From Mycobacterium adipatum (GTDB lineage Bacteria; Actinomycetota; Actinomycetes; Mycobacteriales; Mycobacteriaceae): a stretch of 64,000 nt of DNA. The stretch is from assembly GCF_001644575.1 (NCBI RefSeq), contig NZ_CP015596.1, positions 2,604,001-2,668,000 of the forward strand. The letters run 5' to 3'. The number at the start of each line of letters is the position of its first letter. Within the stretch, counting starts at the first letter, position 1. Below, one piece after another: positions 30,321 through 63,851 of this stretch. The position numbers and the translations under genes are program-made. The notes under the pieces were generated by a model. That model worked only from the letters and a program-made list of their open reading frames with translations, had not been told where the DNA came from and did no database searches.

Positions 30321-31334
30321 GTGCGTGCGTTGATCCCCCTGCTCTTGTTGCTCGTGATCACATCCTGTGGCCGAACCGACCAACCCCCGCCGGCGGCGCC
30401 GTCCGTCGAGGATGCCGGCGCCACGCGCTACCCGCTGACGCTGCAGAACTGTGGCGTGACGGTCACCTTCGAGCGCGCGCCGCAGCGCGCCGTCTCGCTA
30501 TATCAGGCATCCACCGAGATCCTGCTCTCGCTCGGTCTGGCCGACCGCATGGTGGGCACCTCGACGTGGTTCGACCCGGTGCTGCCGGAACTGGCCGCCG
30601 ACAACGACCGGGTGCCCCGGCTCGCGGACAACGATCCGAGCGTGGAAGCGGTGCTCGACCGCGAGCCCGACATCGTCACCTCGGCCAGTGCGCATACGTT
30701 CACCCCGGCGGTCGTCGGGGATCGGGGCCGGCTCGCCGACCTCGGCATCCCCACCTACCAGTCCCCGTCGGTGTGCACCGACGCCGTCGTCGAAGGGGAG
30801 ACCGTCACGCGGACCGGCCCGTTGCAGATGGACACCCTGCTCCGTGAGATCACGGAACTGGCGCAGATTTTCGATGTGCAGGACCGTGGGGCCGCGTTGG
30901 TGAGCGCGCTGCAGCGCCGGTTGGCCGATGCTCCGGTGATCCCGCGACAAGACGCCACCGTCGCATTCTGGTTCTCCGGGTTGCGTACGCCCTACCTGGC
31001 CGGCTGCTGCTCGGCACCCGGTCTCTACGCCCGCGAGGTCGGCGCCATCAACGTCTTCGCCGATGCCGAGGAGGACTGGCCGGAGGTCAGCTGGGAGGCG
31101 CTGGCCGACCGCGACCCCGACGTGCTGGTGTTGGCGGACCTGAGCCGCAAACGGATCGACGGCGATGCGCTGGACACCAAAGTTGCGTTTCTGGAATCCA
31201 ATCCGGTGACCCGCGCCATGACGGCGGTACGGGAGAAACGGTATGTGGTGCTGACGGGCTCCGAGCTGGATCCCGGTATTCGGCAAGTCGGTGCCGTCGA
31301 GAAGCTGGCCGCGGGCTTCGGATCGATGAGATGA
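30321..31334 (+). CDS. Corrinoid/metal-chelate ABC transporter binding lipoprotein (first copy)
   Basis: A 337-residue periplasmic-binding protein of the BtuF/FhuD/TroA-like helical-backbone family. The signal peptide ends in the lipobox VITSC with Cys16. The mature protein has RAVSLYQASTEILLSLGLADRMVGT and LADRDPDVLVLADLS, typical of this family. The GTG start lies 8 nt after GAAGGAAG and directly follows a cobalamin riboswitch, so B12 or a precursor is the likely ligand. It overlaps a second, clearly related binding protein by 4 nt. Confidence 0.85.
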   Translation: MRALIPLLLLLVITSCGRTDQPPPAAPSVEDAGATRYPLTLQNCGVTVTFERAPQRAVSLYQASTEILLSLGLADRMVGTSTWFDPVLPELAADNDRVPRLADNDPSVEAVLDREPDIVTSASAHTFTPAVVGDRGRLADLGIPTYQSPSVCTDAVVEGETVTRTGPLQMDTLLREITELAQIFDVQDRGAALVSALQRRLADAPVIPRQDATVAFWFSGLRTPYLAGCCSAPGLYAREVGAINVFADAEEDWPEVSWEALADRDPDVLVLADLSRKRIDGDALDTKVAFLESNPVTRAMTAVREKRYVVLTGSELDPGIRQVGAVEKLAAGFGSMR

Positions 31335-32344
31335 TCGGGCAAAGTGTCCTGGCGGCCGTGCTGGCGGTGCTGGTCAGCGCCTGCGGGCAGGCCGACAGCC
31401 GGGCCGAAAAGACCGATGCGGCAGTGGGTTACCCGATCACCGTGGCGAACTGCGGCCGTGCGGTCGTCATCGATGCGCCGCCGAAGCGCGCGGTCTCGCT
31501 CAACCAGGGGTCCACCGAGATCCTGCTCTCGCTGGGCCTGGCCGACCGCATGGTCGGCACCGCGACCTGGACGGACCCGGTGCGGGAGAACCTCGCCGAG
31601 GCCAATGCCACGGTGCCGCAGCTGGCGGTCAACAAGCCCTCGCTGGAGAGTGTGCTGGACACCGAACCCGACTTCGTGTCCGCCTCGTTCGCGGGAACCC
31701 TGGGCCCGGGCGGTGTCGCCGACCGCGATCAGTTCGCATCGCTGGGGGTGCCGACCTACCTGGCGCCCAGCGATTGTGTGGGCAAGGTTTCGGTCAACGC
31801 CGACGGCGCCCGCACCGAACCGTTCACCATGGACGCCATCTACGGCGAGATCCGCGATCTGGCCCGCATATTCGACGTCGCCGAGCGCGGCGAGGAACTG
31901 ATCGACGATCTGGACCAACGCATGCAGGCCAGCCGGGTGGTGGCGGACGCCGATCTGGGGTACTGGTTCTCCGATATCCGCGCCCCGTACTTCGGTGGGT
32001 GCTGTGGGTCGCCGGGGGTGATCACCGACACCGTCGGGGCCCGCAACGTCTTCGTCGACACGACCGAGGAATGGCCGCAGGTCAGCTGGGAAGTGATCGC
32101 CGACCGCAACCCCGATGCGCTGGTGCTCGCCGACCTGAGCCGGCGCACCATCGACGGTGATGCGCTGGCCGCCAAGATCGCTTTCCTGGAATCGAATCCG
32201 GTGACCGCGCGGATGACCGCAGTGCAGGAGAAGCGCTACATCGTCGTCAACGGGGCCGACCTGAACCCGTCGATCCGGACCGTCGACGGCGCCGAGAAAG
32301 TCGCCGATGGGCTGCGCCGTTTCGGATTGACCGCCGGCCGTTGA
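31331..32344 (+). CDS. Corrinoid/metal-chelate ABC transporter binding lipoprotein (second copy)
   Basis: A 337-residue lipoprotein (lipobox LVSAC, Cys18), the same length as its upstream neighbour. Long shared segments include STEILLSLGLADRMVGT, AFLESNPVT and WPxVSWE. It arose by tandem duplication. Both copies keep a Cys-Cys pair (GCCSAPG in the first, GCCGSPG here) in the C-terminal lobe. The two could differ in ligand (for example cobalamin versus cobinamide) or have dosage value; this is inference. It is followed by a single permease and a single ATPase gene. Confidence 0.85.
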   Translation: MIGQSVLAAVLAVLVSACGQADSRAEKTDAAVGYPITVANCGRAVVIDAPPKRAVSLNQGSTEILLSLGLADRMVGTATWTDPVRENLAEANATVPQLAVNKPSLESVLDTEPDFVSASFAGTLGPGGVADRDQFASLGVPTYLAPSDCVGKVSVNADGARTEPFTMDAIYGEIRDLARIFDVAERGEELIDDLDQRMQASRVVADADLGYWFSDIRAPYFGGCCGSPGVITDTVGARNVFVDTTEEWPQVSWEVIADRNPDALVLADLSRRTIDGDALAAKIAFLESNPVTARMTAVQEKRYIVVNGADLNPSIRTVDGAEKVADGLRRFGLTAGR

Positions 32345-33366
32345 CCGTGCGTACCCGTTCGCTGCCGGTGCTGTGGGTGCTGGGGCTTGTGCTGCTCGTC
32401 GCCTCGGCGGCGGTGGCCATCACCATCGGTCCGGCCGCACTGTCGGTGCGCGACGTGTACGGGATCGTCGCCGAGCATCTGGGCGCCGGACCGTCGGGCA
32501 CCACCCGGATCCAGGACGGCATCGTGTGGCAGCTGCGGCTGCCGCGGGTGCTGCTGGCCGCCGTGTGCGGTGCGGGCCTGGCGCTGTGCGGGGCGATCCT
32601 GCAGTCCTTGCTACGTAACCCGCTGGCGGATCCATTCGTGCTCGGGGTGTCTTCGGGCGCCTCGACCGGGGCGGTGCTCATCGCGGTGCTCGGGGTGGGT
32701 GGCGGCGCGCTGACCCTGTCCGGTGGTGCGTTCCTCGGTGCGGTGCTGTCCTTCGGGGTGGTGTTGGGATTGGCCTATGCGGCCGGCGGTGGCACCGATC
32801 GGGTGGTGCTCGCGGGAGTGGCGGCGACACAATTGTTTTCGGCGCTCACCTCGTTCATCGTGTTGTCGTCGGCCGATGCCGAGCAGACCCGCGGGGTGCT
32901 GTTCTGGCTGCTCGGGTCGCTGGCCGGGGTCACCTGGAACGATGTCGCGGTGTGCGCCGCGGTCGTGGGCGCGGGGTTGGTGTGCTGCCTGGCCTACGCA
33001 CGGGCCCTGGACGCCTTCGCTTTCGGTGACGACGCCGCCGCCACCCTGGGGGTGTCCGTGCGCCAGGCCCGGATCGTGCTGTTGGTGATGACCGCACTCA
33101 TCACGGCGGCGCTGGTCAGCGCGGCCGGTGCGATCGGGTTCGTCGGGCTGGTGCTGCCGCATGCGGCACGCTTCGTGGTGGGGCCCGCACACGTGCGGCT
33201 GCTCCCGACGGTGGCCATCCTCGGGGCGGTGTTCATGGTGTGGGTCGACACCCTGGCCCGCACCCTGTTTGCGCCGCAAGAGCTGCCCACCGGCGTGGTC
33301 ACGGCTCTGCTGGGGGTCCCGGCGTTCGCGCTGATCCTGTTGCGGCGCCGAGGGATACCGACATGA
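32341..33366 (+). CDS. FecCD/BtuC-type ABC transporter permease
   Basis: A 341-residue, very hydrophobic permease of the FecCD family. Motifs include LRLPRVLLAAVCGAGLALCG, LLRNPLADPFVLGVSSGAS and AAGAIGFVGLVLPHAARF, which correspond to the conserved BtuC helices and the ATPase-contact loop. The start is TTG 32341, overlapping the previous stop, or GTG 32347; the coupling makes the first plausible. Given the upstream riboswitch, the complex is most likely a vitamin B12 importer (BtuCDF-like). Confidence 0.88.
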   Translation: MTVRTRSLPVLWVLGLVLLVASAAVAITIGPAALSVRDVYGIVAEHLGAGPSGTTRIQDGIVWQLRLPRVLLAAVCGAGLALCGAILQSLLRNPLADPFVLGVSSGASTGAVLIAVLGVGGGALTLSGGAFLGAVLSFGVVLGLAYAAGGGTDRVVLAGVAATQLFSALTSFIVLSSADAEQTRGVLFWLLGSLAGVTWNDVAVCAAVVGAGLVCCLAYARALDAFAFGDDAAATLGVSVRQARIVLLVMTALITAALVSAAGAIGFVGLVLPHAARFVVGPAHVRLLPTVAILGAVFMVWVDTLARTLFAPQELPTGVVTALLGVPAFALILLRRRGIPT

Positions 33367-34118
33367 GCCTGCTCGCCGACCAGGTCAGCTGGACGCGGTC
33401 CGGCCGGCTGGTGCTCGACGGTGTCACCGTCGAGCCGGATCCCGGCGCCACGGTGGGATTGCTCGGCCCGAACGGTTCCGGCAAGTCGTCACTGCTGAAA
33501 TTGCTGGCCGGCGTGGACCGGCCGAGCAGCGGGACGGTGCATCTCGACGGTGAACCGTTGACGCGGATGTCGCGGCGCCGGCTCGCCCGCCGGGTGGCGA
33601 TGGTCGCCCAGCACGCCGACACCGAACTGCACATCACCGTGCGTGAGGTGGTGCGGCTGGGCCGCATTCCCCACACCGGCATGATCGCCGCCGATACCGA
33701 CGGGTCGGCGGTGGTCGATGCCGCGCTGGCCGCCACCGGGCTGCAGGACCTGGCCGACCGGTACTGGCACATGCTCTCGGGCGGGGAGCGCCAGCGCGTG
33801 CAGATCGCCCGGGCGCTGGCCCAGGATCCGGACCACCTGCTGCTGGACGAGCCGACCAATCATCTCGACATCGCCCACCAACTGGAGATCCTGGCTCTGA
33901 TACGCACCGTGAACGTCACCACGGTGGTGGCGCTGCACGACCTGAACCTGGCCGCGATGTTCTGCGACCACGTGGTGGTGCTGTCCGGCGGTGCCATCGT
34001 GGCCGTCGGGACCCCCATCCAGGTGCTCACCGAGGACCTCATCGGCACCGTGTACGGCGTGCGGTGCCGGGTCGGCGTCGAGGACGGGGTTGCGCATGTG
34101 CGCTTCGCGCAACGGTAA
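33363..34118 (+). CDS. FecE/BtuD-type ABC transporter ATPase
   Basis: A 251-residue ATPase with Walker A LLGPNGSGKSSLL, signature LSGGERQRVQIARALAQ, Walker B LLLDEPTNHLD and the H-loop His in VALHDLNLA. It starts with an ATGA overlap on the permease stop. It closes the four-gene, riboswitch-controlled importer operon and is followed by a strong inverted repeat. Confidence 0.9.
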   Translation: MSLLADQVSWTRSGRLVLDGVTVEPDPGATVGLLGPNGSGKSSLLKLLAGVDRPSSGTVHLDGEPLTRMSRRRLARRVAMVAQHADTELHITVREVVRLGRIPHTGMIAADTDGSAVVDAALAATGLQDLADRYWHMLSGGERQRVQIARALAQDPDHLLLDEPTNHLDIAHQLEILALIRTVNVTTVVALHDLNLAAMFCDHVVVLSGGAIVAVGTPIQVLTEDLIGTVYGVRCRVGVEDGVAHVRFAQR

Positions 34119-52095: not shown

Positions 52096-53229
52096 ATGCG
52101 CAGTGACGGCCCCTTCGGCATCTACATCCACGTGCCGTTCTGCGCGACCCGCTGCGGATACTGCGACTTCAACACCTACACACCGGCCGAACTTGGGGGC
52201 GCCACCCCCGACGGCTGGCTGGCGGCCGTGCGGGTCGAGTTGGAGCTCGCTGCCCGCCGCGTCGGTGCCCGGCCGGTGGACACGGTGTTCGTCGGCGGGG
52301 GGACACCCACGATGCTCGGGGCTGACGGATTGGTGGCGGTGCTGGCGGCGGTGCAGGAGCGGTTCGAGCTGGCACCCGATGCCGAGGTGACCACCGAGGC
52401 CAACCCGGAGTCCAGCTCCCCGGAGCTGTTCGCCCGGTTACGCGCGGCCGGTTTCACCCGCATCTCGCTGGGCATGCAGTCGGCCGCCACGCACGTATTG
52501 AAGGTGCTCGACCGGGTGCATTCGGCGGGGCGGGCCCCGGCCGCCGCAATGGAGGCCCGCGCCGCAGGGTTCGAGCACGTCAACCTGGACCTGATCTACG
52601 GCACACCCGGCGAGACCGACGATGACCTGTTGCGGTCGATCGAGACCGCGCTGGGGGCCGGTATCGACCACATTTCGGCCTACGCACTGATCGTCGAGGA
52701 CGGGACCGCACTGGCCCGCCGGGTACGCCGGGGTGAACTTCCGGCACCCGACAACGACGTGCTGGCCGACCGCTACGAACTCCTGGACGCGCAGCTGTCG
52801 GCGGCCGGCCTGCACTGGTACGAGGTGTCCAACTGGAGCCGCCCCGGCGGCGAATGCCGGCACAACCTCGGCTACTGGGACGGCGGGCACTGGTGGGGTG
52901 CCGGTCCTGGTGCGCACAGCTTCCTCGGCGCGACACGCTGGTGGAACATCAAGCACCCCAACGCCTATGCCCAGGCGCTCGGCGAGGGCCGGCTGCCGGT
53001 GGCCGATTCCGAGGAGCTCGACGAGTCGGCCCGGCACATCGAGGACGTGATGCTGCGGATGCGGCTGCGCAGCGGCCTGCCGCGCGGCCTGCTCACTGCA
53101 CCCGAACGGCGCCGTGCCGATACCGCGCTCACCGACGGACTGCTGGTCGCCGCCGCGGACCGGCTGGTGCTCACCGACCGGGGCCGGTTGCTGGCCGATG
53201 CGGTGGTGCGTGACCTGCTCGACGACTGA
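52096..53229 (+). CDS. hemW: Heme chaperone HemW (radical SAM)
   Basis: A 377-residue radical-SAM protein with the cluster motif FCATRCGYC (Cys16, Cys20, Cys23). RHNLGYWDGGHWWGAGPGAHSF (His-Asn-x-x-Tyr-Trp) is characteristic of HemW rather than coproporphyrinogen dehydrogenase HemN. HemW binds heme and passes it to membrane targets. In M. tuberculosis the corresponding gene (Rv2388c) is annotated hemN. It converges on the PKS gene with a 2-nt gap. Confidence 0.88.
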   Translation: MRSDGPFGIYIHVPFCATRCGYCDFNTYTPAELGGATPDGWLAAVRVELELAARRVGARPVDTVFVGGGTPTMLGADGLVAVLAAVQERFELAPDAEVTTEANPESSSPELFARLRAAGFTRISLGMQSAATHVLKVLDRVHSAGRAPAAAMEARAAGFEHVNLDLIYGTPGETDDDLLRSIETALGAGIDHISAYALIVEDGTALARRVRRGELPAPDNDVLADRYELLDAQLSAAGLHWYEVSNWSRPGGECRHNLGYWDGGHWWGAGPGAHSFLGATRWWNIKHPNAYAQALGEGRLPVADSEELDESARHIEDVMLRMRLRSGLPRGLLTAPERRRADTALTDGLLVAAADRLVLTDRGRLLADAVVRDLLDD

Positions 53230-53231
53230 GC

Positions 53232-56200
53232 TCAGCCGCAGGACACGCCGACCTCCTCGGCCTGATCGGAACCCGAATGCTCTTGTGGTGTAAGCATTTC
53301 CACGATCTTGGCGGTGACCGCCGCCGCGGTCGGATGCTCCCACAACAGCGTCGGTGGCAGCGCGAGTCCGGTCTTGCGCTCCAGTTGCCGGCGCAGTGCG
53401 ACGGTCATGATCGAGTCGACGCCGATCTCGGCCAGCGGTAGCCGCGGGTCGACATCGTCACCGGGCAAACCGAGTTCGGCGGCCACGGTGGTGAGCACCA
53501 GCTCGGCCACCCACGTCGCGGTGTCCACATCGTCGCGCCCGAGCGGCAACTGCAGACCAGCCAGCCCGTCGGCGTCCTCGTCCTCGCTCGGGGCGATGTC
53601 GGCGAGCATCGGTACCGAGGCGGCGTCGGCGGTCACCGGCAGCACGACGATATGGGCCTGATCGGCCCGCACCGCCAGGTCCAGTGCGCGCATCGCGTCG
53701 TCGGCGCCCACCGTGCCCATCCCCAGCGCGGACAGCTGCGCCGCGACAAAGCTTGACGCCGAACCCATTCCGAGTCCGCGCCAGGCGGTCCAGGCCACCG
53801 CCGTGGTGCGGTCACCGAGGCTGCGGCGGTGCTGTGCGAAGCTGTCGAGGAACGCGTTCGCGCAGGCGTAGGCGCCCTGGCCGGGGAAGCCCGCCAGGTA
53901 TCCACAGGACGAGAACAGCACCAGCCAGTCCAGCTCGCCGGGCGGGAACACCTCATGCAGGGTGAGCGTGCCATCCACCTTGGGGCGCATGGCTTTTGCG
54001 AAATCCTCCGCGGTGCTGCCGGTCAGTAGCGCGCCGGCCTCCACGCCGGCGGCATGCACCACGCCGCGCACCGGCGGCAGGTCGGACAGGGTCGCGCGCA
54101 GCGCCTCGGCCGCACCGGGTGCGGCGATGTCGACGGCCGCCACCCGCACCGACACGCCGCGTTCCTCCAGCGACAGGATGGTGCGGATCGGCTCCTGGTC
54201 GGGGACCCAGGACGCCCGGTCGGCGAGACCGCTGCGGGACACCAGCACGATGCGCCGGGCCCCCAGATCGGCCAGTCGGGCGGCGACGCGCACACCCAGG
54301 GCGCCGGTGCCGCCGGTGATCAGATAGGTGCCTGCCGGCGAACAGGACAGGGTGGTTCGCCTGCTCGACTCGGCCGGGGCCAGGCGCGCGGTCAGGGCGA
54401 TATCGTCGCGGACCACGACGACACCATGACCGCCCAGTGATCCGAGCACGCCGACCGGCAGGCTGTCATCGGCGGTGTCCAGGACGCCGCCCCACAGCCC
54501 GGGGTGCTCGGCCGCCGCGACGCGGGACAGGCCCCACAGCGGTGAGCCGCCGATGTCGCTGCCCTCGTACACGCCCCGGGTCAGTGCCCACAGTTGCGCC
54601 GGTGCAGCACGTTCCAGCAGTACGGTGAGGCTCTCGTGCACCCGCAGGACGGTGTCGAGGGGAGCGTCGCCGGGGTGCGGAAGCACCAGGACGACCGCGC
54701 CGGCGCTCAGTGAAGCCGGGATCTCCTCGGCCGATCGGCACAACCGGTGGTCCACGTCAGCGGCGGCGAGATCCCGCATGCACCAGGCCAGTGTCTCGGC
54801 ATCGCCGCCGACCAGGATCACCTGCGCGGGTGTGGTGGCCTGCCACGGGGTCGGATGCCACTGCAGCTGTTGCATCATGCGGCTGACATCGTTGCCGCCG
54901 GGGTTCTCCAGCTGATCGAAGAACATGCCGTCGATCGCACCGACCACCGTGCCGTCGGCGTCGGCGATCGTGACATCGGCGACCGTGCTGCCGGTACCGC
55001 GGCGAATATGCAGGAATGCCACCGGGACCGGCGCGCCGCGCAGCGCCACCCGGTCGATGCGGGCGGGCATCCGCAACCGCAGCGGGCTGTCGAACACCGT
55101 CGAGGCCGCTGAGGTCGCGGCGTCCAGCAGACCGGCCCAGGTGTCCGGGGTGGTGCCGTCGGGTTCGACGCGCACCACGGCCAGCATCTCGCCGTCACCA
55201 CGGCGCAGTTCGGTGATCTCCCAAGGGAATCCCATGGCCGTCACGCCCAGCTCGGCGAGCGTGTCCACGACGTGTCCGGCGGCCTGCACCGTGCTGCAAC
55301 GGCGGCGCACCCCGGCGATGTCGATGGCCGGCAGCGGGGTCTGTGCGGCGGATGCGACGGCCGTGCAATGGGTGAGCCAGCCCCCGCCGTCGGCATCGGT
55401 GCCGGTCGCGGTGTCCTCGATCCGGGAGGCCAGCGCCAGCGCCCGGTCCTGCAGCACGACCTGCACCGACCGGGCCCGCCCCGGTGCCACCGGGGTGCGC
55501 AGCCGTACGTCAACGATTTCGCTGCCCGCAGCGGTGGCGATGTCGCTGCCCGCAGCGGTGGCGATCTCGCTGCCCGCAGCGGTGGCGATCTCGCCACCGG
55601 CGGCATTGAGGAACGTGTTGAGCAGCACTGCGGCCGGGATGATCTCGGTGCCTTGGACCGGGTGATCGCCCGGATAGGGCCGGGTGTCCATGTCGAGCTG
55701 GGTCTGCCACACCTTGGCAGGCACCGCGGCGGTCACCTCGAGGCGCCCCCCGAGCAGGGTGTTGGTCTGCGGGTCGTGCACCGCACCACCGCCCGGCGGT
55801 GCGGCGGGGGTGCGCCAGAACCGGCGATGCTGCCACTGGGTGCCGGGAAGATCGTGCGCCCAGCCGGTATGCGACGGGCCGAGCCGCACCGGTGCGCCGT
55901 GGCAGTGCAGTGCGGCCATCGTGGTGGTGACCGAGCGCACCTCCGGCATGTTGCGGCGGTGCAGCGGCAGCACCGCGTACTCGTCGAGACCGGCCGCGGT
56001 GAGGGTGTCGACGATGGAGTGGCTGACCACCGGGTGCGGGGCGATCTCCAGGAACAGCCGGTGCCCGTCCTCGGCGGCGGCGGTCACGGCTTCGGTGAAC
56101 CGGACCCGACCGCGCAGGTTGGCCACCCAGTAGTCGCCGTCCCGTGGGGCCGCCGACCGCGGGTCGGCCATGGCCGTGCTGTAGAGCGGAATGCGCGCAG

Positions 56201-58442
56201 GCCGCGGGGACAACGCGCCGGTGAGCCGGGCCAGTTCGCCGGTCAGGGCGTCCATTGCCGGGCTGTGGAACGCGACATCGGTGTTCACCGCGCGGGTCAC
56301 GATGCCCTGTGCCGACCATTCGGCGGCGATGGCCCGCACCGCGTCGGCGGTGCCGGAGATGACCGTCGATTCCGGCGCCGCGCTGATCGCGGCGACGACC
56401 TGGTGTTGGCCGGCCAGGCGTTGCTCGGCGTCGGCGAACGACAGCGCAACCAGCGCCATCGCTCCCGCGCCCTGCACGGAACGGAAACCGCGGGCCCGGT
56501 AGCAGGCGATCCGCGCGCCGTCGGCCAGATCGAAGACGCCGGCGATGACGCAGGCGGCGACCTCGCCGACGGAGTGCCCGATCACCGCGGCCGGCGCCGC
56601 ACCACGGGAGCGCAGCACCGCCGCCAGCCCGACCTGCATCGCGAAGGTCAGGGCCTGCACCTGATCGGTGCCGCCGTGCTCGCCGCCGGCCAGCGCCGCG
56701 CGGGCGGAGAAGCCGAGTTCGTCACCGAATACCGGGTCGATGGCATCGATGACGGCGGCGAATTCGGGTTCCTCGCGCAGCAGCTCGGCGCCCATGCCCA
56801 CCCAGTGCGAGCCGTGTCCGGAACACACCCAGACCGCCCCGGCACCGGCGCCGGGTACCACCGAGCCGGTGGCCACCGAGGAGTGCCGCTCACCGCCGGC
56901 CAACGCGTCCAGGCCGACGATGAGTTCCTTGTGATCCGCGGCGATGACGGCCGCGCGCACCGGCTCGTGGGACCGCCGCGACCACAGGGTGCCCGCGACA
57001 TCGGCCAGTGACTCGTGCGCGGACCGCAGATGGTCGCCGAGCGCCTCGGCGTTGGCCGACAGCCGCGACGGTGATCGGCCGGAGATCGGAACAACGTGAT
57101 ACGCCGAGGCTTTCGCTGCCTCGGTGGGTGCCGGCAGCGGCGCCTCTTCGAGCAGGACATGCGCGATGGTGCCGCCGTAGCCGTAGCTGCACACCGCGGC
57201 GCGGCGGGGCGCCTCGCCGCGCGGCCAACTTTCGGTTTCGGTGTTGACCCGCAGCCCGTTGGTGGCCCAGTCCACCGCGGTGGTGGGAGTCTGCACGCCG
57301 GCGGTCGGCGGGATCGCCTCGTGGTGCAGCGCCAGCGCGGCCTTGATCAGGCCGACCACTCCGGCGCCGCCCTCCAGGTGCCCGGTGTTCGGTTTGACCG
57401 AGCCGACCACGCAGGGCCGGTCCGCGCGGCCGGCGCCGTACACCGCGGACAACGCGGTCAGTTCGACGGGGTCACCGGTCGGGGTGCCGGTCCCGTGCGC
57501 CTCCACGAAATCGATGCCGGCCGGGTCGATACCGGCGGTGCGGCAGGTCATCCGGAACATCTGCTCCTGTGCCGCACCGTTGGGCGACATGATGCCGACG
57601 GTCCTGCCGTCCTGGGCGACGGCCCCGCCGCGCACGACGGCCAGCACCCGGTCGTGGTCGCGCTGCGCGTCGGCCAGCCGTTTGAGCACCACCACCGCGG
57701 CACCTTCACCGCGGCCGTAGCCGTCGGCGGACTCGTCGAAGGATTTGCACCGCCCGTCCGGGGCGGTGGCCCCGGCGACGTCCAGCACCCGGGTCAGGCC
57801 GGGTCCGATCAAGGCGCTGACGCCGCCGGCCAGGGCCAGCGCGGTCTCGCCGGCGCGCAGCAGCTGGCAGGCCTGATGCACGGCGACCAGGGAGGCCGCG
57901 CAGGCGGCGTCCAGCGCGACGCTGGGGCCACGCAGATCGAGCAGGTGGGAGACCCGGTTGGCGATACCGCACAGCGCGGTGCCGATCCCGGTCCAGGCCT
58001 CGATTCCGGGGAGGTCCTCCATGACGAGTTTGCCGTAGTCGTCGGAGTTCACGCCCATCAGCACCGCGGTGTCGCTGCCGGCCAGTGAACGCGGCGGCAC
58101 GCCGGCGTGTTCGAGGGCCTCCCAGCTGACTTCCAGGGCCAGCCGCTGCTGCGGGTCCATGAGTTCGGCCTCGCGCGGGGACACCCCGAAGAACTCGGCG
58201 TCGAAACCCGGCAGGTCGGAAAGGAAGCTGCCGCTGCGTGTGGTCGCCTTCAGGATCGCGGCATTGCGGGGGTCCCTGCGCAGATATGGTTCCCACCGAT
58301 CGGCGGGAACTTCACCGACGGCGCTGTCGCCGTCGAGCAGGAATCGCCAGAAGTCCGCCGGGGAGTTGACATCACCGGCGAGCCGGCATCCGATACCGAC
58401 GATGGCGATCGGTTCCAGGGTGGGTTCCTGGTTATGCGTCAC
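53232..58442 (-). CDS. Iterative type I PKS, 6-methylsalicylic acid synthase-like (KS-AT-DH-KR-ACP)
   Basis: A 1736-residue polyketide synthase. KS (about 10-430) has Cys181 in DAACAASL, His316 in EAHGTGT and His355 in KPNTGHLEG. AT (about 535-830) has Ser624 in GHSVGE and His726. A dehydratase/thiohydrolase-like region has His927 in DHPVQGTEIIP. KR begins near 1365 with LITGGTGALG and has Tyr in GAYACANAF. ACP Ser is near 1676 in GVDSIMT. No ER or thioesterase. Length, domain order and blocks such as MGVNSDDYGKLVMEDLP and AVCSYGYGGT recall fungal and bacterial 6-MSA synthases. It follows mbtA by 132 nt on the same strand, replacing mbtJ/mbtI. It probably supplies 6-methylsalicylate to MbtA. 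An MbtC-MbtD fusion is less likely because a DH is present. Confidence 0.83.
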   Translation of the reverse strand: MTHNQEPTLEPIAIVGIGCRLAGDVNSPADFWRFLLDGDSAVGEVPADRWEPYLRRDPRNAAILKATTRSGSFLSDLPGFDAEFFGVSPREAELMDPQQRLALEVSWEALEHAGVPPRSLAGSDTAVLMGVNSDDYGKLVMEDLPGIEAWTGIGTALCGIANRVSHLLDLRGPSVALDAACAASLVAVHQACQLLRAGETALALAGGVSALIGPGLTRVLDVAGATAPDGRCKSFDESADGYGRGEGAAVVVLKRLADAQRDHDRVLAVVRGGAVAQDGRTVGIMSPNGAAQEQMFRMTCRTAGIDPAGIDFVEAHGTGTPTGDPVELTALSAVYGAGRADRPCVVGSVKPNTGHLEGGAGVVGLIKAALALHHEAIPPTAGVQTPTTAVDWATNGLRVNTETESWPRGEAPRRAAVCSYGYGGTIAHVLLEEAPLPAPTEAAKASAYHVVPISGRSPSRLSANAEALGDHLRSAHESLADVAGTLWSRRSHEPVRAAVIAADHKELIVGLDALAGGERHSSVATGSVVPGAGAGAVWVCSGHGSHWVGMGAELLREEPEFAAVIDAIDPVFGDELGFSARAALAGGEHGGTDQVQALTFAMQVGLAAVLRSRGAAPAAVIGHSVGEVAACVIAGVFDLADGARIACYRARGFRSVQGAGAMALVALSFADAEQRLAGQHQVVAAISAAPESTVISGTADAVRAIAAEWSAQGIVTRAVNTDVAFHSPAMDALTGELARLTGALSPRPARIPLYSTAMADPRSAAPRDGDYWVANLRGRVRFTEAVTAAAEDGHRLFLEIAPHPVVSHSIVDTLTAAGLDEYAVLPLHRRNMPEVRSVTTTMAALHCHGAPVRLGPSHTGWAHDLPGTQWQHRRFWRTPAAPPGGGAVHDPQTNTLLGGRLEVTAAVPAKVWQTQLDMDTRPYPGDHPVQGTEIIPAAVLLNTFLNAAGGEIATAAGSEIATAAGSDIATAAGSEIVDVRLRTPVAPGRARSVQVVLQDRALALASRIEDTATGTDADGGGWLTHCTAVASAAQTPLPAIDIAGVRRRCSTVQAAGHVVDTLAELGVTAMGFPWEITELRRGDGEMLAVVRVEPDGTTPDTWAGLLDAATSAASTVFDSPLRLRMPARIDRVALRGAPVPVAFLHIRRGTGSTVADVTIADADGTVVGAIDGMFFDQLENPGGNDVSRMMQQLQWHPTPWQATTPAQVILVGGDAETLAWCMRDLAAADVDHRLCRSAEEIPASLSAGAVVLVLPHPGDAPLDTVLRVHESLTVLLERAAPAQLWALTRGVYEGSDIGGSPLWGLSRVAAAEHPGLWGGVLDTADDSLPVGVLGSLGGHGVVVVRDDIALTARLAPAESSRRTTLSCSPAGTYLITGGTGALGVRVAARLADLGARRIVLVSRSGLADRASWVPDQEPIRTILSLEERGVSVRVAAVDIAAPGAAEALRATLSDLPPVRGVVHAAGVEAGALLTGSTAEDFAKAMRPKVDGTLTLHEVFPPGELDWLVLFSSCGYLAGFPGQGAYACANAFLDSFAQHRRSLGDRTTAVAWTAWRGLGMGSASSFVAAQLSALGMGTVGADDAMRALDLAVRADQAHIVVLPVTADAASVPMLADIAPSEDEDADGLAGLQLPLGRDDVDTATWVAELVLTTVAAELGLPGDDVDPRLPLAEIGVDSIMTVALRRQLERKTGLALPPTLLWEHPTAAAVTAKIVEMLTPQEHSGSDQAEEVGVSCG
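55516..55587 (-). repeat. Three-copy 24-bp tandem repeat inside the PKS gene
   Basis: Units at 55516-55539, 55540-55563 and 55564-55587 are identical except for one base and encode (E/D)IATAAGS repeats at about residues 951-974. They lie shortly after the DH catalytic His motif, probably in a surface loop. The frame is kept, so copy number could change without truncating the protein. Confidence 0.9.
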
Positions 58443-58574
58443 GGCTGCGAATCCTCTTCACATGATCGGTGTTTACACAGATCGTGGCACGCGACGACGC
58501 TCGGTGGCGGGCTACCTGTTGTGCCTTCGGGCACACTGGTCGCTGAGATCGCAAGCGGATCAACGGATCAACGT

Positions 58575-60239
58575 TCACGACGACCCCAGCAGGGCGATGA
58601 TCTGCTTTTTGTCGACCTTGCCGACCGCGGTCTTGGGAAGCGACGGTAGCCCGGCCAGCATGTCCGGCTTGGCGTGCGAGGACACGCCGCGGCTGTCCAG
58701 GAAGCCGTGCAGCTCTGCCAGCGTCAGCTCCTTGCCGGAGAAAACGACTGCGGCACATATTTTTTCGCCGAGATACTCATCGGGAAGAGCCACCGCGGCC
58801 GCGGCGTAGATACCCGGATGAGCGAACAGGTGCTCTTCCAGGTCCGAAGCCGACACCGTCTCACCGCCCCGGTGGATGACGTCCTTGATGCGTCCGGTCA
58901 CCTCGACGTGGCCGGCCAGTGGGCCGTCGGCGAAGATCCGCACCCGGTCCCCGGAGCGGTAGTGGCCCTGGGCGCTGAACGAGCGCGCGTTGGCTTCCTC
59001 GGCGCGGTAGTACCCGTTGATGGTGTTGGGTCCCCGCACCAGCAGTTCGCCCTCTTCACCCGGGGCCACGGCATCGCCGTGCTCGTCGACCACGAGCATC
59101 TCGTCGTGCGGGGACATCGGACGGCCCTGGGTGTGCAACAGCACCTCAACCGGGTCACCCGGACGGGTGAAGTTCAGCATTCCCTCGGCCATCCCGAAGA
59201 TCTGGGACAGCCCCGGGGTGAGGTTGTCCAGGATGAACCTGGCCTCCTCGGCGGTCATCCGCGACCCACCCACCTGGACCACCCGCAGCGAGGTGGGCAG
59301 CACCGGCTCCCAGTCGCAGGCCTGCGCCCAGACCTTGGCCAGCGCGTTGACCAGGCCCGTCACCGTCACGTGGTGCTTGTCGATGAGGGCGAACGCGTTC
59401 TCCGGGCTCGGGTCGTCGGTGAACACCGTGGGGGCGCCGACGGTCATCGCGCCGAGCAGTCCGGGGCAGGCGAGCGGGAAGTTGTGCCCAGCCGGCAGCG
59501 CGACGAGGTAGGTGTCATCGCTGGTCATCCGGTACTCCCGGGCCGATGCAACGGCCGTGTAGACGTAGTCGTCGTGGGTCCGCGCGATCAGTTTGGGCAG
59601 CCCGGTGGTGCCACCGGAGACCAGCAGCAGCGCGGGTGCGGCCGGGTCGAACTGCCCGCGTACCGGCGCAGTCGCCGGCCCGTCGGCACCCGGATCGGTC
59701 AGCGCCGACCACGGGAGGTACCCACCCGGGTCGCCGTCGACGATCACGTGACGCAGCTGCGGGTGGTCTCGCTGCAGTTGGGCTGCCATCGCGCGAAAGT
59801 CGAAACCGGCTGCGGTATCGGTGATCACGAGACCGACCGCGCCGCTGATGCCGGCGAAGTGGCTCAGTTCGGCAGACCGGTGGCCCGACAGACACATCAC
59901 CGGCACCACGCCGGCGCGCAGCAGGCCGAAGAACGCGACGGCGAACTCGGTGGTGTTCGGTAGCTGCAGCAGCACCCGGTCGCCGGCCTGCAGTCCCCGT
60001 GCGGCCAACCGCGCGGCCACCCGGTCGGCGACGGCGTCCAGTTCGGCGAAGGTATAGCTGCGCTGCGCATCGACAATCGCGGTGACCTCGGGCCACCGGG
60101 CCGCCGCATTGCTGAGAATCGAGTCCAGTGGTTGCCCGGTCCAATAGCCCGCGTGCCGGTAGGTGGCGGCGCGATCGGCCGGGAAAGGGACAAAACCGTC
60201 GGTCAGATCGCCCTGTCCCTGCGAAAAACCCGTGCTCAT
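58575..60239 (-). CDS. mbtA: Aryl acid adenylating enzyme (salicyl/6-methylsalicyl-AMP ligase)
   Basis: A 554-residue stand-alone adenylation enzyme. A3 motif LVSGGTTGLPKLIARTH, A5 FGMAEGMLN, A7 YRSGDRVRI and A10 PKTAVGKVDKK are intact. In the aryl pocket HNFPLACPG (252-260) has Cys258, where 2,3-dihydroxybenzoate enzymes have Ser, favouring salicylate-type acids. It activates the aryl cap and loads it onto the N-terminal carrier of MbtB. It is divergent from mbtB across IdeR-like boxes and a TATATT -10. A 6-MSA-synthase-like PKS follows downstream. Confidence 0.9.
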   Translation of the reverse strand: MSTGFSQGQGDLTDGFVPFPADRAATYRHAGYWTGQPLDSILSNAAARWPEVTAIVDAQRSYTFAELDAVADRVAARLAARGLQAGDRVLLQLPNTTEFAVAFFGLLRAGVVPVMCLSGHRSAELSHFAGISGAVGLVITDTAAGFDFRAMAAQLQRDHPQLRHVIVDGDPGGYLPWSALTDPGADGPATAPVRGQFDPAAPALLLVSGGTTGLPKLIARTHDDYVYTAVASAREYRMTSDDTYLVALPAGHNFPLACPGLLGAMTVGAPTVFTDDPSPENAFALIDKHHVTVTGLVNALAKVWAQACDWEPVLPTSLRVVQVGGSRMTAEEARFILDNLTPGLSQIFGMAEGMLNFTRPGDPVEVLLHTQGRPMSPHDEMLVVDEHGDAVAPGEEGELLVRGPNTINGYYRAEEANARSFSAQGHYRSGDRVRIFADGPLAGHVEVTGRIKDVIHRGGETVSASDLEEHLFAHPGIYAAAAVALPDEYLGEKICAAVVFSGKELTLAELHGFLDSRGVSSHAKPDMLAGLPSLPKTAVGKVDKKQIIALLGSS

Positions 60240-60284: not shown

Positions 60285-60303
60285 ATAGGGTAGCCTCGCC
60301 CTA
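60285..60303 (-). promoter_or_regulatory. IdeR-like iron box 1
   Basis: Read toward mbtA, TAGGGCGAGGCTACCCTAT matches the IdeR consensus (TTAGGTTAGGCTAACCTAA) at 13 of 19 positions, including the AGGCTA core. It overlaps the probable mbtA -10 box TATATT (60282-60287). It predicts iron repression of mbtA and the downstream PKS. Confidence 0.75.
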
Positions 60304-60304
60304 G

Positions 60305-60323
60305 TTAGGGCAGCCTGTACTAA
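60305..60323. promoter_or_regulatory. IdeR-like iron box 2
   Basis: TTAGTACAGGCTGCCCTAA (minus strand) matches the IdeR consensus at 14 of 19 positions. One nucleotide separates it from box 1, and it ends 18 nt before the mbtB start, covering the likely mbtB promoter. Two adjacent dimer sites allow coordinated repression of both directions. Confidence 0.75.
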
Positions 60324-60341: not shown

Positions 60342-63300
60342 GTGGGCGTCGCTGCGACGACATCAGACACCGTTCGCGCGGAGGTGGCAGAACTGCTCGG
60401 AATCGCGCCGGAGGAATTGGATCCGGGTGCCGACCTCATCGCCTCCGGCCTGGACTCCATCCGGATGATGTCGTTGTCCGGACGCTGGCGCAAACAGGGC
60501 ATCGAGGTCGGGTTCGCCGCGCTGGCCGCCACCCCCACGGTGCGGGCCTGGCAGGAACTGGTGGCCGAGCATGCACCCGCCGCACCCGTCGTCGACGTGG
60601 CCACCGCGCCCGATCACGATCCCGGCGCGCCCTTCTCGCTGGCTCCCATCGCGCACGCGATGTGGGTCGGCCGCCACGGTGAGCAGGAGCTCGGCGGTGT
60701 CGCCGCGCACCTCTACGTCGAATTCGACGGCACCGATGTCGACCCCGTTCGTTTGCAGGAAGCAGCCACCAAACTTGCTGTGCGCCATCCGATGTTGCGC
60801 CAGGAGATCCTCCCGGACGGCACCCAGCGGATCGGCGACCGCGGCTTGCCGGTGACCGTCTACGACCTGCGGGCGCTGGACGCCGTTGCCGCCGACGCGC
60901 GTCTCGAACGCATCCGTGACGACAAGTCGCATCAACTGATGGACAACGAGGTACTGCAGATCTCGTTGTCGCAGTTGCCCGGTGGTCGCACCCGCCTGCA
61001 CGTGGACATGGACATGCAGGCCGCCGATGCGGTGAGCTATCGCAACTTCATGGCCGATCTGGCGGCCTACTACCGCGGCGCCGATCTCCCCGAACTGGGC
61101 TACACCTACCGGGAGTACCGCGCCCGGCTGACCGCGGCCACCCCGCCGCCGTCGGAGGCCGACCGGCAATGGTGGGCGGAGCGCATCCCCGATCTTCCCG
61201 AACCGCCGGCGCTGCCGCTCGTCCCGCGCGGCGAGCAGCAGAACCCGTTGCGCAGCATCAGGTTATGGCACATCTTCGACGTACCGACCCGTGATGCGCT
61301 GTTCGCCGCGGCACATCGCCGGGGCATCACACCGGCGATGGCCGTGGCCGCGGCGTACGCCAACGCGCTGGCCCGCTGGTCCAGCGACGCACGCTTCCTG
61401 CTCAACCTGCCGATGTTCGGTCGCGAGCCCTATCATCCCGACGTCGACAAACTGGTGGGCTGCTTCACCTCCTCGCTGATGCTCGACATCGACCTGGCCG
61501 GCACCGGTTCGGCGGCCGCCCGAGCGCAGGCGGTGCAGGACGTCCTGCACGCCACCGCCGCGCACTCGTCGGTGTCCGGCCTGGACGTGCTGCGCGATAT
61601 GAGCAGGCACCGCGGTACCCAGACCCTGGCCACCATCGTCTACACCAGCGCGCTGGGGCTGGGGGACCTGTTCGCCGGCGACGTCACCGACCAGTTCGGT
61701 GAGCCGGTGTGGACCATCTCCCAGGGTCCGCAGGTGCTCATCGACGCCCAGGCCACACCGCTGGCCGACGGACTGATGATTAACTGGGACGTCCGCGTGC
61801 AGGCCTTCCCACCCGGGGTGCCGGAGGCGATGTTCGCCTACGAGATCGCCGAATTGGCCCGGCTGGCCGAGAGCGACGCGGCCTGGGATGAACCGGACCC
61901 GCCCGCGCTGTCGGCGGACGCCCGCGCCGTCCGCGACGCCGTCAACGCCACGACCGCGGCCCCCAGCGGTGAGAACCTGGTGGACGGCTTCTTCCGCAAC
62001 GCCGAGGCCGCTCCCGCGGCCACCGCGCTGATCGCGAGCACCGACACGCTGACCTACGGTGAACTGAAAGAACGAGTGCTTGCGGTGGCCGGCACGCTGC
62101 AGGCCGGCGGTGTCGGCTCCGGCGATATCGTCGCCGTGCTGGGACCCAAAGGCGCCCAGCAGATCCCCGCGTTGCTCGGCATACTCACCGCCGGGGCGGC
62201 CTACCTGCCGATCGGTGTCGATCAGCCCGTCGACCGGGCTGCACGCATGCTGGCTACCGCAGGGGTGACATTCGCGCTCGTCTGTGGCGACGACGTTCCC
62301 GACGTGCTGGCCACCGCCGGTGTCCCGTTCCGACGCATGGTCGATATCGGCACTGCCGTGACACCATTCGAACCCGTCACGGTGGCACCGAGCGACTTGG
62401 CCTATGTGCTGTTCACCTCCGGTTCCACCGGCGAGCCCAAGGGTGTGGAACTGACCCACGACGCGGTGCTCAACACCCTGGAATTTCTCTACCGGCACTT
62501 CCAGATCGGGCCCGAGGACCGGGAATTGGCGCTCTCGCACCTGGAATCGGACATGTCGGTACCCGATGTGTTCGGCATCCTGCGCGCCGGCGGCGCCATC
62601 GTCATGGTCGACGAGGACCAGCGGCGCGATCCGGACAGCTGGGCACGGTTGATCGCCCGACACAAGGTATCGGTGGTCAACTTCCTTCCCGGCTGGCTGC
62701 AGATGCTCACCGAGGTCCCCGGCGACCTCAGTTCGCTGCGGGTGGTGCTCACCGGCGGGGACTGGGTGCGGCCCGACCTGGTCCGGGCATTGCGTGCCCG
62801 CGCCCCCCGAATGCGGTTCGCCGGACTGGGCGGCGCGACCGAGACGGCGATCCACGGCACCATTTTCGAGATCGGGCCCGCCTCCGGCCCAGATCTGGGG
62901 ATTCCCGCGAATGCCCCTTCGGTGCCCTACGGTGTGCCGTTCCCCAACAACGCCTGCCGGGTGGTCAGCCCCACCGGCGAAGACAGCCCGGACTGGGTGC
63001 CCGGGGAACTCTGGTTCACCGGTCGTGGCATCGCCCGCGGCTATCGCGGCCGCCCGGACCTGACAGCCGAGAAATTCGTCGAGTACGAAGGCCGCACCTG
63101 GTACCGCACCGGGGACCTGGCCCGCTACTGGCCGGACGGCACCCTGGAGTTCATCGGCCGCGCCGACCACCGCGTCAAACTCAGCGGGTACCGCATCGAA
63201 CTCGGTGAGGTGGAAGCGGCGCTGGGCCGGGTGCCGGGTGTGGGCGCGGCCGTGGCCGCGGTGATTCCGGCCGGCGGCGAGCGGCCCGGTGGGTACGACC

Positions 63301-63851
63301 GCGACGTCCTTGGTGCGCTGGTCCGCATCGACGATGCCGGGGTGGACGCCGACGCGGTCCTCACCGCGATGGCCGGCCTGGTGCCGGCCCACATGATCCC
63401 GCAGGTCATCGTGACCACCGACCGGATCCCGTTCACCGTCGGCGGCAAGATCGACCGCAAGGCGGTGGCCGGGCGCCTGGCCGAGGCCGAACTGCCCGCC
63501 GGGCGCGGCTACCGCGCACCGTCCACCCCGCTGGAAACCGCACTCGCCCACATCATGTCCGGCCTGCTGGGTCGCGACACCATCGGCGTGGACGACGACT
63601 TCTTCGGTCTGGGCGGTGATTCGGTGATGGCCACGCACGTGGTGGCGCAGGTGCGTGACTGGCTCGACACACCCACCATCATGGTGCCCGACGTGTTCGC
63701 CACCAGGACGGTCGCCGCGCTGGCCGAACGCCTGATGGAGCGGGAATCCGAGGCGCAGCGCCTGGAACTGGTGGCCGAGCTGTACCTGGAGGTCGCCGCC
63801 ATGGACGATGCCGACGTGGTGTCCGAACTCGACACCGCGGGCCGCGCATGA
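60342..63851 (+). CDS. mbtB: Mycobactin NRPS MbtB (ArCP-Cy-A-PCP)
   Basis: A 1169-residue NRPS. The aryl carrier domain has Ser39 in GLDSIRMM. The heterocyclisation domain (about 95-500) has DMDMQAADAVS, the DxxxxDxxS motif. The adenylation domain (about 550-1060) has LFTSGSTGEPKG and YRTGDLARYW. The peptidyl carrier has Ser1094 in GGDSVMATH. It should couple the aryl acid to Ser/Thr and form the oxazoline ring. M. tuberculosis MbtB (about 1414 residues) has a C-terminal thioesterase; here that is a separate overlapping gene. The GTG has GGAGG 7 nt upstream. Confidence 0.9.
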   Translation: MGVAATTSDTVRAEVAELLGIAPEELDPGADLIASGLDSIRMMSLSGRWRKQGIEVGFAALAATPTVRAWQELVAEHAPAAPVVDVATAPDHDPGAPFSLAPIAHAMWVGRHGEQELGGVAAHLYVEFDGTDVDPVRLQEAATKLAVRHPMLRQEILPDGTQRIGDRGLPVTVYDLRALDAVAADARLERIRDDKSHQLMDNEVLQISLSQLPGGRTRLHVDMDMQAADAVSYRNFMADLAAYYRGADLPELGYTYREYRARLTAATPPPSEADRQWWAERIPDLPEPPALPLVPRGEQQNPLRSIRLWHIFDVPTRDALFAAAHRRGITPAMAVAAAYANALARWSSDARFLLNLPMFGREPYHPDVDKLVGCFTSSLMLDIDLAGTGSAAARAQAVQDVLHATAAHSSVSGLDVLRDMSRHRGTQTLATIVYTSALGLGDLFAGDVTDQFGEPVWTISQGPQVLIDAQATPLADGLMINWDVRVQAFPPGVPEAMFAYEIAELARLAESDAAWDEPDPPALSADARAVRDAVNATTAAPSGENLVDGFFRNAEAAPAATALIASTDTLTYGELKERVLAVAGTLQAGGVGSGDIVAVLGPKGAQQIPALLGILTAGAAYLPIGVDQPVDRAARMLATAGVTFALVCGDDVPDVLATAGVPFRRMVDIGTAVTPFEPVTVAPSDLAYVLFTSGSTGEPKGVELTHDAVLNTLEFLYRHFQIGPEDRELALSHLESDMSVPDVFGILRAGGAIVMVDEDQRRDPDSWARLIARHKVSVVNFLPGWLQMLTEVPGDLSSLRVVLTGGDWVRPDLVRALRARAPRMRFAGLGGATETAIHGTIFEIGPASGPDLGIPANAPSVPYGVPFPNNACRVVSPTGEDSPDWVPGELWFTGRGIARGYRGRPDLTAEKFVEYEGRTWYRTGDLARYWPDGTLEFIGRADHRVKLSGYRIELGEVEAALGRVPGVGAAVAAVIPAGGERPGGYDRDVLGALVRIDDAGVDADAVLTAMAGLVPAHMIPQVIVTTDRIPFTVGGKIDRKAVAGRLAEAELPAGRGYRAPSTPLETALAHIMSGLLGRDTIGVDDDFFGLGGDSVMATHVVAQVRDWLDTPTIMVPDVFATRTVAALAERLMERESEAQRLELVAELYLEVAAMDDADVVSELDTAGRA

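What the first reader, a model, noticed from the sequence alone, without database searches (positions are those of the whole stretch)
53232..60239. A 6-methylsalicylic acid synthase-like PKS sits in the mycobactin locus in place of mbtI/mbtJ
Seen: a 1736-residue KS-AT-DH-KR-ACP protein without ER or thioesterase, on the same strand as mbtA and 132 nt behind it. Its KS blocks (for example MGVNSDDYGKLVMEDLP) and length resemble iterative 6-MSA synthases. No salicylate synthase gene lies in the window, and the region between hemW and mbtA, where M. tuberculosis has mbtI and mbtJ, holds only this PKS. Known from older siderophore chemistry, as I recall it: some fast growers, such as the source of mycobactin P, make mycobactins capped by 6-methylsalicylate. 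Inference: this is the genetic source of that cap, with MbtA loading 6-MSA onto MbtB and iron control through the shared IdeR boxes.
Basis: partly seen in the sequence, partly recalled or inferred. Interest (0 to 1): 0.9.

Follow-up and report, generated by a model that had tools for sequence, protein, structure and literature searches.

The report
Polyketide starter enzyme in mycobactin locus
Many environmental mycobacteria appear to build the iron-grabbing end of mycobactin with a polyketide enzyme of the 6-methylsalicylate type instead of the salicylate synthase known from the tubercle bacillus, which would explain a half-century-old observation about the chemistry of these siderophores.

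Summary
In detail: an intact 1736-aa KS-AT-DH-KR-ACP polyketide synthase (53232-58442, -) fills the gap between hemW and mbtA, and the whole genome has no MbtI-type salicylate synthase. Of 396 same-genus genomes 125 carry this PKS, 210 MbtI, 20 both; of 315 with MbtA only one has neither. The PKS lies within 15 kb of mbtA in 117 of 117 genomes with both on one contig. M. aurum carries it, and so does a genome of the length I recall for M. phlei; both are recalled as makers of 6-methylsalicyl mycobactins. Two arrangements exist: convergent to mbtA with its own IdeR-like box (78 of 84), and the window's mbtA-PKS tandem without one (0 of 27), derived once on the tree. MbtA beside the PKS forms its own clade with substitutions in or near the aryl pocket. 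Fifteen loci hold mbtI and the PKS side by side, predicting mixed mycobactins. The chemistry is old and the enzyme class known; a 2009 tree already had four Mycobacterium PKSs of unknown function beside fungal 6-MSA synthases. The genus-wide starter switch was not seen in the open-access library searched.

The parts
53232..58442 (-). 6-methylsalicylate-synthase-like iterative type I PKS, 1736 aa, GTG start
   Evidence: 11 of 11 catalytic residues invariant in 121 of 121 aligned sequences, the window's included
57294..58415 (-). KS domain (aa 10-383); Cys181, His316, His355
   Evidence: Pfam PF00109/PF02801, residues
55893..56834 (-). AT domain (aa 537-850); Ser624, His726 in an AFHSP motif (malonyl type by recalled motif rule)
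   Evidence: PF00698
54897..55757 (-). DH or thioester-hydrolase-like domain (aa 896-1182); His927, Asp1107
   Evidence: PF21089 over cut-off, PF14765 weak; invariant in 121
53778..54332 (-). KR domain (aa 1371-1555); Ser1512, Tyr1525, Asn1529
   Evidence: PF08659
53310..53501 (-). ACP (aa 1648-1711); Ser1677
   Evidence: PF00550
58575..60239 (-). mbtA-like aryl-acid AMP ligase, 554 aa, of the PKS-associated MbtA clade (N298, R327, I347, M354)
58443..58574 (-). 132-nt mbtA-PKS gap without an IdeR-like box (best 9 of 19)
60285..60303 (+). IdeR-like box between mbtA and mbtB (3 mismatches)
60305..60323 (+). IdeR-like box between mbtA and mbtB (1 mismatch)
60342..63851 (+). mbtB-like NRPS, divergent from mbtA
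52096..53229 (+). hemW, usual left boundary of the locus

Best explanation
The PKS is an iterative 6-methylsalicylate synthase that supplies the aryl cap of mycobactin in place of MbtI. Shown here: an intact enzyme, its fixed place beside mbtA, the complementary occurrence with MbtI, and IdeR-like boxes that follow its orientation. Inferred: the single module condenses acetyl-CoA with three malonyl-CoA, reducing once; cyclisation gives 6-methylsalicyl-ACP; the acid is freed by the DH/thioester-hydrolase-like domain; MbtA adenylates it and loads MbtB. In the window's lineage the gene appears to be read with mbtA from the IdeR-controlled mbtA-mbtB promoter region. In the more widespread convergent lineage it has its own IdeR-like box.
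For: Architecture and 11 catalytic residues invariant in 121 of 121. No MbtI or PchB over cut-off in the genome. 396 genomes: PKS only 105, MbtI only 190, both 20, neither 81, Fisher p 8e-25 (genomes are related, so p is indicative). MbtA in 314 of the 315 with PKS or MbtI; MbtA without either in 1 (G355, 88% complete); none of the three in 80. PKS within 15 kb of mbtA in 117 of the 117 genomes with both on one contig, 112 within 6 kb. IdeR-like box (>=13 of 19) before the PKS in 78 of 84 convergent and 0 of 27 tandem loci; controls 6 of 595 shuffled, 0 of 476 intragenic. One orientation change on the PKS tree. MbtA of PKS loci separates from MbtI-only MbtA with support 0.995 and has fixed or near-fixed substitutions in or near the aryl pocket. 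The closest ligase structures after MbtA are CahJ, including 5wm4 with 6-methylsalicyl adenylate. Precedent: cahuitamycin C is capped by 6-MSA, proposed to come from a separate 6-MSAS via CahJ; the cahI deletion makes only this form and feeding 6-MSA raises it (PMC4757757, passages). M. aurum carries the PKS and no MbtI over cut-off; its mycobactin A is recalled as 6-methylsalicyl. [quoted passage not shown] that they are this PKS is a guess.
Against: No product was measured. The S. cahuitamycinicus PKS may not be the cahuitamycin one: that genome has no salicylate synthase over cut-off. CahJ, which binds 6-methylsalicyl adenylate, keeps the salicylate-type residues, so the MbtA substitutions are not required for 6-MSA and may partly be lineage marks; three of the seven separating columns (375, 445, 520) are not among the pocket positions I point to. 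PKS-type MbtA is one clade, so its association with the PKS is not independent in every genome. Six of the 84 convergent loci lack a box at this threshold.
Confidence: 0.87

Rival explanations
1. The PKS does cap mycobactin but with a different aryl acid, for example one from another starter unit or reduction pattern, so the siderophore is not the 6-methylsalicyl form.
For: AT and KR specificity are only inferred from motifs; identity to the two full-length Streptomyces homologues is only 45-47%.
Against: 6-methylsalicyl is the non-salicyl cap recalled for classical mycobactins, including those of M. aurum and M. phlei; the module has what 6-MSA needs and Pfam shows no ER or methyltransferase domain.
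Confidence: 0.07
2. The cap is still salicylate, made from isochorismate by an unrecognised lyase, and the PKS is a side activity or a later decoration.
For: The genome has an isochorismate synthase (TIGR00543 over cut-off).
Against: No PchB-type lyase over cut-off (best 26.9 of 73.35 bits); the isochorismate synthase has an ordinary role in menaquinone synthesis (recalled); PKS and MbtI substitute for each other across 396 genomes.
Confidence: 0.05
3. The PKS belongs to another pathway and stands beside mbtA by chance.
For: It is not needed for a mycobactin locus: 190 of 396 genomes have MbtI and no such PKS.
Against: Adjacency in 117 of 117 genomes with both on one contig, own IdeR-like boxes in 78 of 84 convergent loci, and tracking with a distinct MbtA clade.
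Confidence: 0.01

Closest known systems
M. tuberculosis mbt locus with MbtI salicylate synthase (gene order recalled)
   Same: Divergent mbtA and mbtB, MbtC/MbtD, hemW nearby, IdeR-like boxes
   Different: The hemW-mbtA slot holds an iterative PKS; no MbtI-type salicylate synthase in the genome
Cahuitamycin C pathway of Streptomyces gandocaensis (PMC4757757, passages)
   Same: 6-MSAS of the same KS-AT-DH-KR-ACP layout feeding an aryl-AMP ligase of a siderophore NRPS; a salicylate synthase can coexist
   Different: There the 6-MSAS is genetically unlinked and works beside CahI; here it is in the locus, apparently under the locus's iron control, and usually (105 of 125 genomes) the only starter enzyme
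Bacterial iterative 6-MSA synthases of antibiotic pathways (chlorothricin, maduropeptin, pactamycin moieties named in PMC2636887; enzyme names such as ChlB1 recalled)
   Same: Domain order, length, lack of TE (recalled)
   Different: There 6-MSA ends up in an antibiotic; here in a mycobactin
Four Mycobacterium PKSs of unknown function, sister to fungal 6-MSAS-type PKSs (PMC2636887, Results section)
   Same: Same genus and 6-MSAS kinship; probably members of this family, but the accessions are only in a figure that is not held
   Different: No locus, siderophore link or function was given in what I saw; they were called modular
CahJ aryl-AMP ligase, PDB 5wm2-5wm7
   Same: MbtA is about 48% identical and matches its fold; 5wm4 holds 6-methylsalicyl adenylate
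   Different: CahJ keeps the salicylate-type P/K/V/L residues; PKS-type MbtA has N/R/I/M there

Membership tests
Bacterial iterative type I 6-MSA synthase | Single module KS-AT-DH(TH)-KR-ACP, about 1700-1800 aa, no ER, no TE | tested here: met
Bacterial iterative type I 6-MSA synthase | Intact catalytic residues in all five domains | tested here: met
Bacterial iterative type I 6-MSA synthase | KS clades with proven 6-MSA synthases | tested here: inconclusive
   26 mycobacterial KSs group with three Streptomyces ones, 0.987, but none is proven; the database that might hold proven ones was off. PMC2636887 puts four Mycobacterium PKSs beside fungal 6-MSAS, identity with this PKS not shown
Bacterial iterative type I 6-MSA synthase | Makes 6-methylsalicylic acid | not testable with these tools
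   needs enzyme assay or mass spectrometry
Mycobactin biosynthetic locus | MbtA, MbtB, MbtC, MbtD together | tested here: met
   MbtA and MbtB-like in window; a KS-only PKS at MbtC's place, named by position, and MbtD over its cut-off just outside
Mycobactin biosynthetic locus | IdeR boxes in the mbtA-mbtB promoter region | tested here: met
   2 matches in 64 kb, both there, 0.14 expected; recalled consensus
MbtI-type salicylate synthase (TIGR03494) | Family match over curated cut-off anywhere in the genome | tested here: not met
   best 175.6 of 325.15 bits; that gene is TrpE
MbtC/MbtD and other PKSs of the genome | KS clusters with them | tested here: not met
   (MbtD has no KS in the models hit; the MbtC-place KS was in the tree)

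The most novel reading that the evidence does not exclude
Mycobactin biosynthesis in the genus split into two starter-unit systems. A 6-methylsalicylate synthase with its own IdeR box came to lie between hemW and mbtA, sometimes next to mbtI; MbtA's aryl pocket diverged with it; mbtI was lost, kept or left behind near hemW (5 changes on the PKS tree, direction not settled); and one inversion later put the PKS under the mbtA promoter. About a third of sampled species would thus make an acetate-derived, shikimate-independent siderophore cap, and about 5% carry genes for both caps. A further extension, at odds of about 0.4, is that the four Mycobacterium PKSs of unknown function found in 2009 as sister to fungal 6-MSA synthases are these enzymes, so that the fungal patulin-type synthases have a siderophore starter enzyme as nearest bacterial kin.
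Probability: 0.8. Interest if true: 0.72.

Novelty: new variant of a known kind. Interest (0 to 1): 0.68.

Why it matters
It names a candidate gene for the methylated aryl cap of several classical mycobactins, whose acetate origin in M. phlei was described around 1970 (recalled) without a gene. If the reading is right, MbtI, pursued as an anti-tubercular target, is absent and not needed for mycobactin in about a quarter (105 of 396) of sampled species of the genus, which bears on the use of such environmental species as models and on the expected spectrum of MbtI inhibitors. It also gives a clean evolutionary case of a siderophore swapping its starter-unit chemistry while keeping iron control through a promoter change, and it offers a function for Mycobacterium PKSs that a 2009 tree left as unknown next to fungal 6-MSA synthases (PMC2636887; identity not shown).

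Tried and rejected
Tried without result. A first genus-wide search with the whole PKS failed on the machine; it was replaced by aa 870-1370 as query, which separates this PKS from others: 125 genomes at E <= 2.5e-78 and 49 more between about 1e-20 and 4e-32, which I dropped as similarity of other PKSs. The large protein database was switched off, so no proven fungal or bacterial 6-MSA synthase entered the tree; among the rows shown, plasmid records and the PDB gave none with a product known to me as 6-MSA. ORFs in the hemW-PKS and PKS-mbtA gaps of relatives were clustered to look for further siderophore genes: among the 14 largest clusters shown, some of them antisense frames, only mbtI stood out, in 15 loci; by eye and recall others are sigma/anti-sigma, luciferase-like, HNH-repeat and FAD-oxidoreductase-like. 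A search for an own promoter or a terminator in and near the 132-nt gap gave nothing above shuffles; a hairpin there is seen by eye in close relatives and has no assigned role.

Considered and rejected: replacement of MbtC or MbtD by the PKS (genes at both places are present); the MbtA substitutions as proof of 6-MSA specificity (CahJ binds the 6-MSA adenylate without them).

Weak points of my own steps: two of the three MbtI queries (from L028 and L031) were antisense ORFs; every hit used came from the L029 query, which bears out as the sense frame. The 16 MbtI-only MbtA sequences (of 190 such genomes) were taken from those nearest to the window's MbtA, because only such places were listed. 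Shuffles keep base composition only. In one search six tips of unknown orientation were allowed either state. The name M. phlei for G132 rests on a contig length of 5,349,645 that I recall for strain CCUG 21000; PMC9430659 (passages) gives 5.35 Mb. A genome paper tried by DOI was not held. The structures of mycobactins A, P and F are recalled from the older literature and found in no call.
Full report
What is there. The ORF at 53232-58442 on the minus strand encodes 1736 aa with KS, AT, DH, KR and ACP and without ER or thioesterase. It stands 132 nt behind an MbtA-like aryl-AMP ligase (58575-60239, minus) and ends 2 nt from hemW (52096-53229, plus). The MbtB-like NRPS (60342-63851, plus) is divergent from mbtA, and the only two IdeR-like matches in the 64 kb window lie between them, at 60285-60303 and 60305-60323 (0.14 expected; consensus recalled). 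A KS-only PKS at MbtC's place and an MbtD over its cut-off follow just outside the window.

No other starter route is visible. In the whole genome (6.05 Mb, 100% complete) the salicylate synthase model TIGR03494 reaches at most 175.6 of 325.15 bits. The three chorismate-binding genes are TrpE, PabB and an isochorismate synthase, and no pchB-type lyase reaches its cut-off.

The enzyme looks functional and of the 6-MSAS kind. In a KS tree with 26 mycobacterial sequences, the KS groups with three Streptomyces PKSs (0.987) and not with the MbtC-place, Pks13-like or modular KSs of the genome; the mycobacterial sequences form one clade (1.000). With the aa 870-1370 query, a family-wide sample gave 15 of 301 genomes at E <= 1e-60, all in one of 31 genera, and a phylum-wide sample 3 of 396 at E <= 1e-40, all in one of 236 genera; more distant homologues would not show at these limits.

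The same 396 genomes of the genus, G000 included, were searched for MbtI (210 of 396 over the cut-off), for this PKS (125 of 396 at E <= 2.5e-78; 49 weaker matches dropped) and for MbtA (315 of 396). PKS only 105, MbtI only 190, both 20, neither 81. Of the 315 with PKS or MbtI, 314 have MbtA; MbtA without either occurs once (G355, 88% complete), MbtI without MbtA once (G256), and 80 have none of the three. So a mycobactin starter enzyme, one or the other, is practically always present when MbtA is.

Synteny. In 117 of 117 genomes with PKS and MbtA on one contig the matched stretches lie within 15 kb, 112 within 6 kb; 88 are convergent, 29 tandem; in 7 more they lie on different contigs, and G075 has only a weak MbtA. 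Of 125 loci tabulated (119 unnamed, 6 from named records, 2 of these Streptomyces and 3 duplicates), 77 read hemW> PKS> mbtA< mbtB>, 22 read hemW> PKS< mbtA< mbtB> as in the window, and 26 lack one or more neighbours in the stretch held. Named carriers are M. aurum, M. frederiksbergense, M. chlorophenolicum and Mycobacterium sp. MBM, and none of these 4, nor of the 3 Streptomyces, has MbtI over the cut-off.

Iron control follows orientation. In the convergent arrangement the PKS cannot be read from the mbtA promoter, and there an IdeR-like 19-mer (>=13 of 19) lies before it in 78 of 84 loci. In the tandem arrangement none lies before it (0 of 27; the window's own best is 9 of 19). Before mbtA it is present in 109 of 111. 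Controls: 6 of 595 shuffled, 0 of 476 intragenic stretches. Eighty boxes with at least 12 matches on the PKS strand, 38 distinct, keep the palindromic core. On the full-length PKS tree, rooted on Streptomyces, orientation changes once, from convergent to tandem, and the 31 tandem tips (3 of them named duplicates) form one clade (0.94). I read this as one inversion from an ancestral, separately regulated gene to co-transcription with mbtA; in 6 of 27 fetched tandem loci the PKS start overlaps mbtA's stop codon (gap -1 counted without the stop).

Species with both genes. Of the 20 genomes with both, 15 have mbtI between hemW and the PKS in the same locus. Four (G031, G109, G163, G363) have mbtI about 2.3 kb from a hemW homologue elsewhere, with one gene between, while their PKS-mbtA stretch shows no hemW. 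The twentieth is G075, whose PKS frame and MbtA match are weak. On the PKS tree MbtI co-presence changes 5 times, with absence at the root by parsimony, so repeated loss is not shown. Such species should make mixed mycobactins; mycobactin F of M. fortuitum is recalled as such a mixture, but I could not name its genome here.

Literature. The library of open-access papers was searched for 6-methylsalicylate with mycobactin or Mycobacterium and for variants (listings with titles and abstract starts). No listed paper was seen to link a 6-MSA synthase gene to mycobactin; subscription journals are not held, and most listed papers were not opened. PMC4757757 (passages) gives the closest precedent, cahuitamycin C. 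[quoted passage not shown] accessions are in a figure not held. PMC10296737, PMC4810606, PMC9514802, PMC11684644 and PMC6262359 (passages) add nothing on the cap. That 6-methylsalicylate occurs in mycobactins P and A and is made from acetate in M. phlei is recalled from work of the 1960s and 1970s.

Verdict. The finding is real and its interpretation is most likely right. It is a new variant of a known kind: a known class of enzyme in a known pathway, but a starter-unit swap on a genus-wide scale, with regulation re-wired by what looks like one inversion. Not shown: the product, the release step, and MbtA's preference.

Noticed in passing
window 30321-34118: Consecutive same-strand ORFs; the first, 30321-31334, matches a siderophore-binding (EitA) and an F420-0 substrate-binding ABC model, both below cut-off, so a second iron-uptake system may lie about 20 kb from the mycobactin genes. 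The other ORFs were not scanned.
   Followed up: partly
L111 (G020), L134 (G014), L168 (G230), L170 (G307), L125 (G375), L179 (G075): PKS reading frames of odd length (1123, 999, 1192, 1134, 1963, 949 aa). L134 and L170 are cut by the end of the stretch held; the rest may be frameshifts, fusions or assembly errors. G020 has no MbtI, so a truly broken gene there would predict loss of mycobactin.
   Followed up: no
L205-L208: In four tandem-type genomes mbtI stays near hemW while the PKS-mbtA cluster sits elsewhere without hemW in view, as if the cluster had moved or been replaced.
   Followed up: partly
window 58443-58574 and relatives L062-L069: The 132-nt mbtA-PKS gap holds a short inverted repeat (TGTGCC..GGCACA) kept by eye, with variation, in close relatives, with no T-run; role unknown.
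   Followed up: partly
plasmids NZ_CP011869 and NZ_CP013855: Pseudonocardia plasmids with an ant host entry carry a PKS 48.6% identical to aa 7-1134 of this one.
   Followed up: no
L025, L026: Streptomyces relatives: in L025 the PKS sits with an AMP ligase, a tryptophan halogenase and an O-methyltransferase, suggesting a halogenated aromatic product; the L026 PKS frame appears interrupted.
   Followed up: no
G355 and G256 (whole genomes): The only genome with MbtA but neither starter enzyme, and the only one with MbtI but no MbtA, among 396.
   Followed up: no
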